Of a stretch of 47,925 nucleotides of DNA, positions 16,810 through 17,539 are shown piece after piece. Origin of the DNA: a virus; IMG/VR virus record IMGVR_UViG_3300034166_000283, positions 1 through 47,925 of that record; one strand, given 5' to 3'. The notes under the pieces are model-generated. The model searched no databases, was not told where the DNA came from, and was given only the letters and a program-made list of their open reading frames with translations. Made by a program: the position numbers and the translations under genes. Numbering within the stretch: the stretch's first letter is position 1; every line of letters starts with the position of its first letter.

Positions 16810-16887
16810 ATGAGAACTCCGCCCGCTTATGGCGCATTAGGTTTCAGCAAGCGGCAAGCTACCGCACTGATTAACGGAGTCTTTTTT
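16810..16887 (+). terminator. terminator-like hairpin overlapping a possible 27-aa peptide gene
   Basis: ACTCCG (16816-16821) pairs with CGGAGT (16875-16880), followed by CTTTTTTC, with CCGCTT/AAGCGG inside: a branched intrinsic terminator. The same DNA is open from ATG 16810 to TAA 16891-16893 and would encode MRTPPAYGALGFSKRQATAL plus INGVFFL. The start context AATAGAAATGA resembles neighbouring real starts. The long, GC-rich loop is unusual for a plain terminator. Confidence 0.5.
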
Positions 16888-16909
16888 CTTTAACGCCAAA
16901 TGAAATGAG

Positions 16910-17033
16910 GGAGTGGTGAGTGAAGCTGTAGTTAGCACACCACTGATAAAGGTGACTATACTGAAAAAGGGTTTAGACTAAGTATAGGTGAAATCAGGCT
17001 AACCAGAAACCTTGAGAGACCCGAAGCCACTCC
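16910..17033 (+). ncRNA. candidate pseudoknotted structured RNA, 124 nt
   Basis: Closed by GGAGTGG/CCACTCC (16910-16916, 17027-17033). Inside lie GTTAGC/GCTAAC, CTGAT/ATCAG and CTATACT/AGTATAG, four helices that stack into one long arm ending in a loop containing GGGTTT. That loop can pair with AAACC or GACCC in the 3' strand, giving a pseudoknot. No start codon with a good frame fits. It lies 35 bases before the 156-residue gene and could be a leader element (riboswitch-like) or a free RNA. Family not recognised. Confidence 0.55.
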
Positions 17034-17068
17034 TTCTATTTCATATCCAATAAATCATTTACAACCCT

Positions 17069-17539
17069 ATGAACAACTTTAGTTTCCTTAAGATATACAA
17101 CTCACCGTTCAAGCGGCCACGTATAAACATATACTTCGGTAAGATTGTCGTAGGTACTCCGTACTTCCCCCCTCGCCGCAAGGTCAAGTCTAAGACGAAA
17201 GATGGATGGATTGAGTTCAAACCAAAGTACTTCGGATTTGACTTCGTTGACCTTGGTTGGAAGACCAAATGGAGCGACACCGACTATCGCCACGAGTGGA
17301 ATCCAAGATGGTCGTTCGTGTTCTGGAAGTGGCAGCTTGCCGTCATCTTCTCTTCTCCAGCATTAGACTCTCTCTCTGCCTATTGGGAGGCTTGGCTGTA
17401 CTACAGATACGACACGGTTGGAACGATGGAACAGCGAGTGGCTCAGTGCAAAGAAAAAAACCCGATGAGTTCAACTAGTTATCCAAGCCTCAAACACACG
17501 AATCACTACGATGAAATACTTAAAAATAAGTACCTATGA
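17069..17539 (+). CDS. conserved Bacteroidota-phage protein, 156 aa
   Basis: Contains INIYFGKIVVGTPYFPPRRK, FDFVDLGWKTKWSDTDYRHE and WSFVFWKWQLAVIF, an aromatic-rich pattern I recognise from Bacteroidota phage genomes, with no known role. Soluble, beta-rich, with a Pro/Ser-rich C-terminus. It overlaps the phosphoesterase start by four bases. Confidence 0.8.
   Translation: MNNFSFLKIYNSPFKRPRINIYFGKIVVGTPYFPPRRKVKSKTKDGWIEFKPKYFGFDFVDLGWKTKWSDTDYRHEWNPRWSFVFWKWQLAVIFSSPALDSLSAYWEAWLYYRYDTVGTMEQRVAQCKEKNPMSSTSYPSLKHTNHYDEILKNKYL

What the first reader, a model, noticed from the sequence alone, without database searches (positions are those of the whole stretch)
16910..17033. 124-nt RNA with long stacked arm and loop pseudoknot
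Four successive helices (7, 6, 5 and 7 bp) with perfect pairing, plus a loop GGGTTT that can pair with AAACC or GACCC near the 3' strand. Such order is unlikely by chance. It lies between a terminator-like element and a conserved phage gene, so it may be a leader riboswitch or a free RNA.
Basis: seen in the sequence. Interest (0 to 1): 0.65.

Follow-up and report, generated by a model that had tools for sequence, protein, structure and literature searches.

The report
Portable pseudoknot RNA of tailed phages
The spot marks a real structured RNA that belongs to a widespread, apparently undescribed family of phage RNAs, usually kept as one copy per phage and often wedged between phage tRNA genes; its job is not known but is probably done by the free RNA.

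Summary
It belongs to a large RNA family in tailed phages of Bacteroidota, Gammaproteobacteria, Alphaproteobacteria and probably Bacillota. Compensatory changes strongly support P1, a 3-bp P2a, the base of P4 and the pseudoknot. No Rfam 15 family covers it.

Three features stand out. (1) In 46 of 91 distinct canonical members a same-strand tRNA lies within 150 nt, mostly within 10 nt, and none on the opposite strand. (2) 48 of 50 whole records hold exactly one copy. (3) The same core occurs circularly permuted, and once each inside a tmRNA and inside the P6 arm of a group I intron. RB69 and a close relative of the window phage lack it at the same site.

Context independence and single copy favour a trans-acting stable RNA over a leader riboswitch. 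A new self-cleaving ribozyme remains the main rival. Expression, partner and activity are untested.

The parts
16900..17044 (+). whole RNA element including extended P1 (ATGAAAT/ATTTCAT plus 11 bp, one bulged U at 17037)
   Evidence: sequence; 157-nt stretch identical in 4 of 4 rows compared; absent from near relative L065
   Evidence: R2 77 bits, E 1.9e-18; the near-identical L001 copy was one of the 34 sequences of the model
16907..16917 (+). P1, 5' strand (pairs with 17026-17036)
   Evidence: P1 covaries, 4-5 pair types per position, 0/1000 shuffles
17026..17036 (+). P1, 3' strand
16918..16925 (+). conserved joiner J1/2 (GAGTGAAG; family AGUGAAG / AGUAACG / AGUACG)
16926..16928 (+). P2a 5' strand CUG, pairs with CAG 17004-17006
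   Evidence: CTG/CAG, CAG/CTG, CTC/GAG, CTT/AAG, CTA/TAG pairs in relatives
16931..16936 (+). P2b 5' strand GTTAGC, pairs with 16998-17003
   Evidence: ATTAGC/GCTGAT in L122; the arm is variable elsewhere in the family
   Evidence: intact in 9 of 9 distinct close sequences; CTGAT/ATCAG broken in 4 of 9; invariant, so no covariation support
16956..16987 (+). P4 hairpin CTATACT/AGTATAG with 18-nt loop
   Evidence: base of P4 covaries across the family (columns 52-54 with 73-75)
16968..16974 (+). pseudoknot strand AGGGTTT in the P4 loop, pairs with AAACCTT 17007-17013
   Evidence: AT/GC/GT at pair 2, AT/TA at pair 7
17007..17013 (+). pseudoknot 3' strand AAACCTT
17014..17025 (+). conserved joiner J3/1 GAGAGACCCGAA (family GAAAGACCCGAA / GAAACACCCAAA)
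   Evidence: five forms seen 51, 9, 7, 3 and 1 times in 71 cores

Best explanation
What it is (well supported): a member of a phage RNA family of about 90-135 nt. Its core is P1, a conserved joiner (AGUGAAG or AGUAACG), a 3-bp P2a, a variable arm ending in a hairpin whose loop (AAGGUUN or AGGGUUN) pairs back onto NAACCUU directly after P2a, then GAAAGACCCGAA, then P1'. How it works (inferred): it is a stable, trans-acting RNA. It is transcribed within a phage operon (in tRNA arrays, among small ORFs as in this window, or as a 3'UTR domain in the permuted form), is released or left attached, and folds on its own. The fixed core presents the two conserved joiners to one partner, most likely a host or phage protein or the translation machinery, whose activity it alters. 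Shown: fold, single copy, genomic contexts, permutation, gain and loss. Inferred: transcription, processing, trans action, partner.
For: Covariation: 71 distinct cores, P1 pairs 92-100% paired with 4-5 pair types, pseudoknot pair 7 AT 35 / TA 28 / TT 8, pair 2 AT 50 / GC 12 / GT 9, each 0/1000 shuffles; independent count on 34 sequences, 160 double-change cells against 50.1 in shuffles, covariation score 0.587 against 0.184, 0/500, slid controls 0.07-0.15. Single copy: 48 of 50 whole records have exactly one motif and none two; model R2 finds 50 of 50, 48 with one hit, two with a further weak hit of 24.1 and 17.5 bits. tRNA-array siting: 46 of 91 distinct canonical members; 24 of 32 upstream gaps and 31 of 39 downstream gaps within 10 nt; 0 opposite strand; 33 of 76 loci within 150 nt against a random mean of 5.1, max 13 in 200 draws. 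Context independence: inside a tmRNA of Cellulophaga phage phi14:2 right after the tag, inside a group I intron of Klebsiella phage VLCpiM5b, circularly permuted in 13 loci. Presence/absence at fixed sites: L065 against the window; RB69 (6-nt gap between tRNA-Met and tRNA-Arg) against phage mogra (RNA between the same two tRNAs).
Against: No transcript, processing or binding data. 45 of 91 canonical members, and this window's copy, have no tRNA within 150 nt (window tRNA 12 kb away). Single copy would also fit a unique cis role. Permuted copies sit shortly after stop codons and some run into T-runs, which could be read as a cis 3'-end element. Trans action does not by itself explain why tRNA arrays are preferred. 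47 of 50 records of relatives by neighbouring genes have no strong hit, so the RNA is dispensable over evolution.
Confidence: 0.5

Rival explanations
1. A new class of self-cleaving ribozyme used in processing tRNA-array and 3'UTR transcripts, analogous to theta ribozymes.
For: Compact pseudoknotted core with 22 invariant columns in the 34-sequence alignment, many unpaired; natural circular permutation, which the passage read lists only for hammerhead and twister ribozymes, 5S rRNA and group II introns plus a few RNAs permuted at the gene or processing level (PMC10085705, passages); siting beside phage tRNAs as for theta ribozymes (PMC10879173, section 7).
Against: An intact core sits inside a group I intron between two DNA polymerase CDS and inside a tmRNA, where obligate cutting would be costly. 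Gaps to tRNA ends vary (-1 to 12 nt for most), so there is no fixed cut next to a tRNA end. No Rfam ribozyme family matches.
Confidence: 0.2
2. A cis-acting processing or stability element of the tRNA-array or mRNA transcripts that carry it (end protection, RNase recruitment, 3'-end formation).
For: Abuts tRNAs by a few nt; permuted copies begin shortly after stop codons and four (L131, L135, L164, L191) end in T-runs.
Against: One copy per genome even in 346-kb and 297-kb records with many transcripts; RB69, T4 and T5 keep tRNA arrays with no match in the regions searched.
Confidence: 0.14
3. A riboswitch or other leader element sensing a ligand.
For: Aptamer-like architecture; in one permuted case (L131) a T-run follows and the next ORF looks like a class II ribonucleotide reductase (my reading of its first residues from the DNA, family recalled, not searched); one copy follows an RNR small-subunit gene (Eldridge).
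Against: No consistent downstream gene; sits between tRNAs, within a tmRNA, and at operon ends facing opposite-strand genes. The RNA is absent upstream of most homologues of the 156-aa gene.
Confidence: 0.09
4. A selfish mobile module with no function for the phage, spread by recombination at cassette borders and inserted at tolerant sites of structured RNAs.
For: Presence/absence at fixed sites, insertion in P6 of an intron and after a tmRNA tag, HNH genes near some copies.
Against: Copy number stays at one; compensated core over very different phages; no mobility gene consistently linked.
Confidence: 0.06

Closest known systems
Phage T5 stable RNAs of unknown function (RNAIII 106 nt, RNAI 107 nt, RNAIV 103 nt and others) and T4 rnaC/rnaD (species 1 and 2 RNA)
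   Same: Stable phage RNAs of about 100-140 nt encoded inside tRNA arrays, a nucleotide or a few from tRNA genes, function unknown (record annotations).
   Different: Sequence and structure do not match: family model R2 finds no hit in the T5 region (22000-48000) or RB69 region searched, and in the T4 region only 11.2 bits (E 0.9) outside rnaC/rnaD.
GOLLD and ROOL RNAs
   Same: Phage and prophage RNAs of unknown function often near tRNA islands, pseudoknotted (PMC12286853, passages).
   Different: Those are large (many GOLLD over 800 nt) and form nanocages; this one is about 90-135 nt and is not matched by any Rfam model.
Theta ribozymes (minimal HDV-like ribozymes beside phage tRNAs)
   Same: Small pseudoknotted RNA beside phage tRNAs, many in Bacteroidota phages (PMC10879173, section 7).
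   Different: Theta ribozymes are HDV-like with the cut site at the tRNA 3' end; here P1 pairs the two ends, the pseudoknot joins a hairpin loop to the strand after P2a, and the gap to the tRNA is not fixed.
Hammerhead and twister ribozymes
   Same: Conserved core known in circularly permuted natural forms (PMC10085705, passages).
   Different: No match to their Rfam models; no cleavage shown.

Membership tests
This new family (model R2) | P1 + J1/2 + P2a + loop pseudoknot + GAAAGACCCGAA core | tested here: met
   window 16910-17033, 77 bits, E 1.9e-18; the near-identical L001 copy was among the 34 sequences of the model
Any Rfam 15 family | score at or above gathering threshold over the motif | tested here: not met
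   window; best 11.8 bits against gathering 70; 34 relatives' loci; hits are tRNA, tmRNA, group I intron and others that do not model this motif
Theta / HDV-like ribozyme | HDV-like nested double-pseudoknot fold (recalled) | tested here: not met
   no Rfam HDV-family hit; topology of the covarying helices differs
Theta / HDV-like ribozyme | self-scission | not testable with these tools
   needs in vitro transcription
Riboswitch | consistent position upstream of a regulated gene class | tested here: not met
   contexts
Riboswitch | ligand binding | not testable with these tools
   needs in-line probing
GOLLD / ROOL | match to family model | tested here: not met
   no hit
T4 rnaC/rnaD, T5 stable RNAs | homologous core | tested here: not met
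   R2 on L202, L319, L320
Stable phage RNA of a tRNA array (kind, not family) | accumulates as a discrete RNA | not testable with these tools
   siting within a few nt of tRNAs only

The most novel reading that the evidence does not exclude
Tailed phages of distant hosts maintain exactly one copy of a portable RNA machine that works in trans and whose core tolerates circular permutation and grafting into tmRNA or a group I intron; its partner is a host factor tied to translation or tRNA-targeting defence, making it an RNA-based host-takeover or counter-defence factor (or, failing that, a new ribozyme class).
Probability: 0.35. Interest if true: 0.92.

Novelty: new variant of a known kind. Interest (0 to 1): 0.74.

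Why it matters
Stable RNAs of unknown function in phage tRNA arrays are annotated in T4 and T5 (records), but I found no family of them spanning many phages. This one spans phages of several host phyla, has a fold backed by covariation, and occurs in a phage that grows on E. coli K-12 (mogra) while its relative RB69 lacks it at the same site, so its role can be tested directly. Natural circular permutation and grafting into a tmRNA and an intron are rare for RNAs and suggest that the core is a self-contained functional unit.

Tried and rejected
Direct similarity searches with the window copy found nothing distant, and a model from the near-identical copies (R1) gave only weak hits. Gapped patterns made from the unpaired blocks opened the family. 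L110-L112, L114-L116 and L118 from those scans read as chance matches. L124 and L125, the only bacterial-genome hits, read as chance; that one genome scan used the GAGAG variant only, so bacterial chromosomes were not fairly searched. A family-model search over a bacterial phylum was not possible. The E. coli collection (20,395 records) had no match to the mogra copy. Weak R2 hits in relatives (L220-L224, 15-22 bits) were read and set aside; L222 is a coding start.

Rejected: coding function of the element (frames touching it are 22-33 aa); the T4 and T5 stable RNAs as members; the 5-bp CTGAT/ATCAG helix; the GACCC pairing of the loop (GACCC hardly changes while the loop position changes with AACCTT). 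No other copy of the element was seen in the first 98 loci except the near-identical ones, which speaks against a template/variable-repeat system; linked guide-RNA nucleases or reverse transcriptases were not specifically looked for. A loop-E/bulged-G reading of GAA...AGUA is recalled from memory; 51 of 71 cores have AGTA there and 55 of 71 GAA, but this window has ACTA.

Rows dropped before the counts: of 85 distinct motif places, nine were left out: L124, L140, L141, L165 as chance or unresolved, L143 as truncated, L164, L194, L203, L211 because the script's joiner pattern did not fit; 76 rows gave 71 distinct cores. In one search five members read by eye were added (L164, L203, L211, L215, L216). 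In one search, 10 of 46 distinct places were unresolved by the script. In one search no permuted copy of 13 had an ARAGORN tRNA within 500 nt, but Rfam later scored a tRNA at L193:1584-1657, close after that permuted copy; and one of two places called permuted (L234) lies by a tRNA and may be a truncated canonical copy.

Full report
Observation. Their nested combination is far beyond chance (0 of 1000 shuffles, 0 of 1196 windows; 0 of 2000 for the 20-bp version without the 5-bp helix), although ordinary folding energy is unremarkable (z -1.32). P1 continues outward to 16900/17044. The stretch is identical over 157 nt in the four rows compared (window, L001, L002, L003). It is missing, together with the next gene, from L065, whose phosphoesterase is 98% identical.

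Finding relatives. Plain similarity failed. Patterns built from the unpaired blocks with the helices left open hit distant phages, several with the same 31-nt spacing and with P1 and P2 changed in a compensated way. The 3' joiner pattern then gave 79 stretches in IMG/VR (some of them chance) and a second form gave 54. BLAST with three named members gave matches in 61, 52 and 60 of 50,697 phage records, the weakest rows being chance. Named carriers include Cellulophaga phi14:2, phi19:1, phi19:3, Nekkels_1; Erwinia Hena1; Klebsiella KP13-26, RaK2, VLCpiM5b, KpGranit; Pseudomonas Milchi; Proteus PM135, Stubb; Escherichia mogra, G2469; Pectobacterium My1, PM2; Xanthomonas XaC1; Rhizobium RHph_N28_1; and, with weak model scores, Bacillus Eldridge and a Zobellviridae phage.

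Fold. On 71 distinct cores (62 canonical, 9 permuted) all six P1 pairs examined vary among four or five pair types and are 92-100% paired. P2a is CTG/CAG with CAG/CTG, CTC/GAG, CTT/AAG and CTA/TAG. The pseudoknot's last pair is AT in 35, TA in 28, TT in 8, and its second pair AT 50, GC 12, GT 9. An independent count on a 34-sequence alignment gives 93.8% paired cells against 72.1% shuffled, 160 double-change cells against 50.1, and covariation score 0.587 against 0.184, 0 of 500 shuffles for each, falling to 0.07-0.15 when slid; the number of pairs with any double change (14 against 12.2, reached by 39 of 500) is not remarkable. Relatedness of the sequences is not removed by the shuffles, but the slid controls keep it. 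The arm between P2a and the loop hairpin varies in length and form. In the window's own subfamily CTGAT/ATCAG is broken in 4 of 9 sequences and CACC/GGTG kept in 9 of 9.

Permutation. In 13 loci the order is loop hairpin, P2a', pseudoknot strand, GAAAGACCCGAA, P1 closed by its own loop, AGUGAAGCUG, P2: the canonical molecule opened in the arm instead of at P1. Four more loci show the same order with P1 shrunk to a turn (L232, L242, L270, L273); the script left most of them unresolved, and this is my reading of the letters. P1 and P2a pair in the permuted copies too, L191 with the swapped CAG/CTG. By ARAGORN none of the 13 lies within 500 nt of a tRNA, but Rfam places one tRNA close after the L193 copy.

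Contexts. Of 91 distinct canonical members, 46 have a same-strand tRNA within 150 nt, 25 on both sides, none on the opposite strand; median gaps are 4 nt upstream and 5 nt downstream. Random placement in 76 loci gives a mean of 5.1 against 33 observed. RB69 has tRNA-Met and tRNA-Arg 6 nt apart; mogra has the RNA between the same two tRNAs. In phi14:2 the permuted copy follows the tag stop codon within a tmRNA called by ARAGORN (tag GSSVQKLAMVA) and scored 46.0 bits by Rfam, one bit below its gathering score. In VLCpiM5b the canonical copy forms the distal part of P6 of a group I intron (69.8 bits, gathering 50) between two CDS annotated as DNA polymerase. In this window the copy stands in a run of small ORFs, 35 nt before a 156-aa ORF with no PHROG or Pfam match.

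Copy number. 48 of 50 whole records hold the joiner motif exactly once; the two without it carry a variant. Model R2 finds at least one copy in 50 of 50 (these records were chosen because they carry it), exactly one in 48, and a second weak hit in two. Divergent second copies below the model's reach are not excluded.

Function. A cis element would be expected in several copies or beside one gene class. A single copy that may sit anywhere, in either permutation, even inside another RNA, is what a trans-acting RNA would look like. That step is inference. The ribozyme rival rests on the rarity of natural permutation outside ribozymes (PMC10085705, abstract and passages) and on the theta-ribozyme precedent (PMC10879173, outline and section 7). 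It is weakened by intact cores inside an intron and a tmRNA.

Known or new. No Rfam 15 family covers the motif. Paper searches (open PMC library only, listings read) showed no description; a report in a subscription journal or preprint could exist. As a kind, stable RNAs in phage tRNA arrays are annotated in T4 and T5, so I file it as a new variant of a known kind.

Noticed in passing
window 16815-16888: The 'terminator-like element' upstream is a conserved element of its own: its 27-nt start occurs in 45 IMG/VR stretches, 38 distinct contexts. It reads as a 27-aa frame, but in several copies the start codon is ATT and the C-terminus varies, so a conserved hairpin-plus-T-run terminator or small RNA is more likely than a protein. 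Two copies in L101.
   Followed up: partly
L195:1291-1762 (Cellulophaga phi14:2): A phage tmRNA in which the region after the tag holds the permuted RNA domain.
   Followed up: partly
L186:500-1010: Permuted motif preceded by a tag-like frame ending KLQMAA (my reading) and followed by a group I intron (785-1010, 82.8 bits); possibly a tmRNA interrupted by an intron, not called by ARAGORN.
   Followed up: no
L232, L242, L270, L273: Permuted members whose P1 is reduced to a tight turn (GAAGGTTCAGCTC) with a long outer stem, suggesting that P1 is dispensable when the ends lie elsewhere.
   Followed up: no
L319:8285-19567 (phage T5): T5 has eight annotated misc_RNA genes, most noted as stable RNAs of unknown function, in its tRNA region; none matches this family, so other undescribed RNA families may be there.
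   Followed up: partly
window 17069-17539: 156-aa ORF after the RNA, with relatives in 63 viral loci but no PHROG or Pfam match.
   Followed up: no
G060:C1:92170-92277, G078:C1:13540-13581: Possible second, diverged copies of the RNA (24.1 and 17.5 bits), not read.
   Followed up: no
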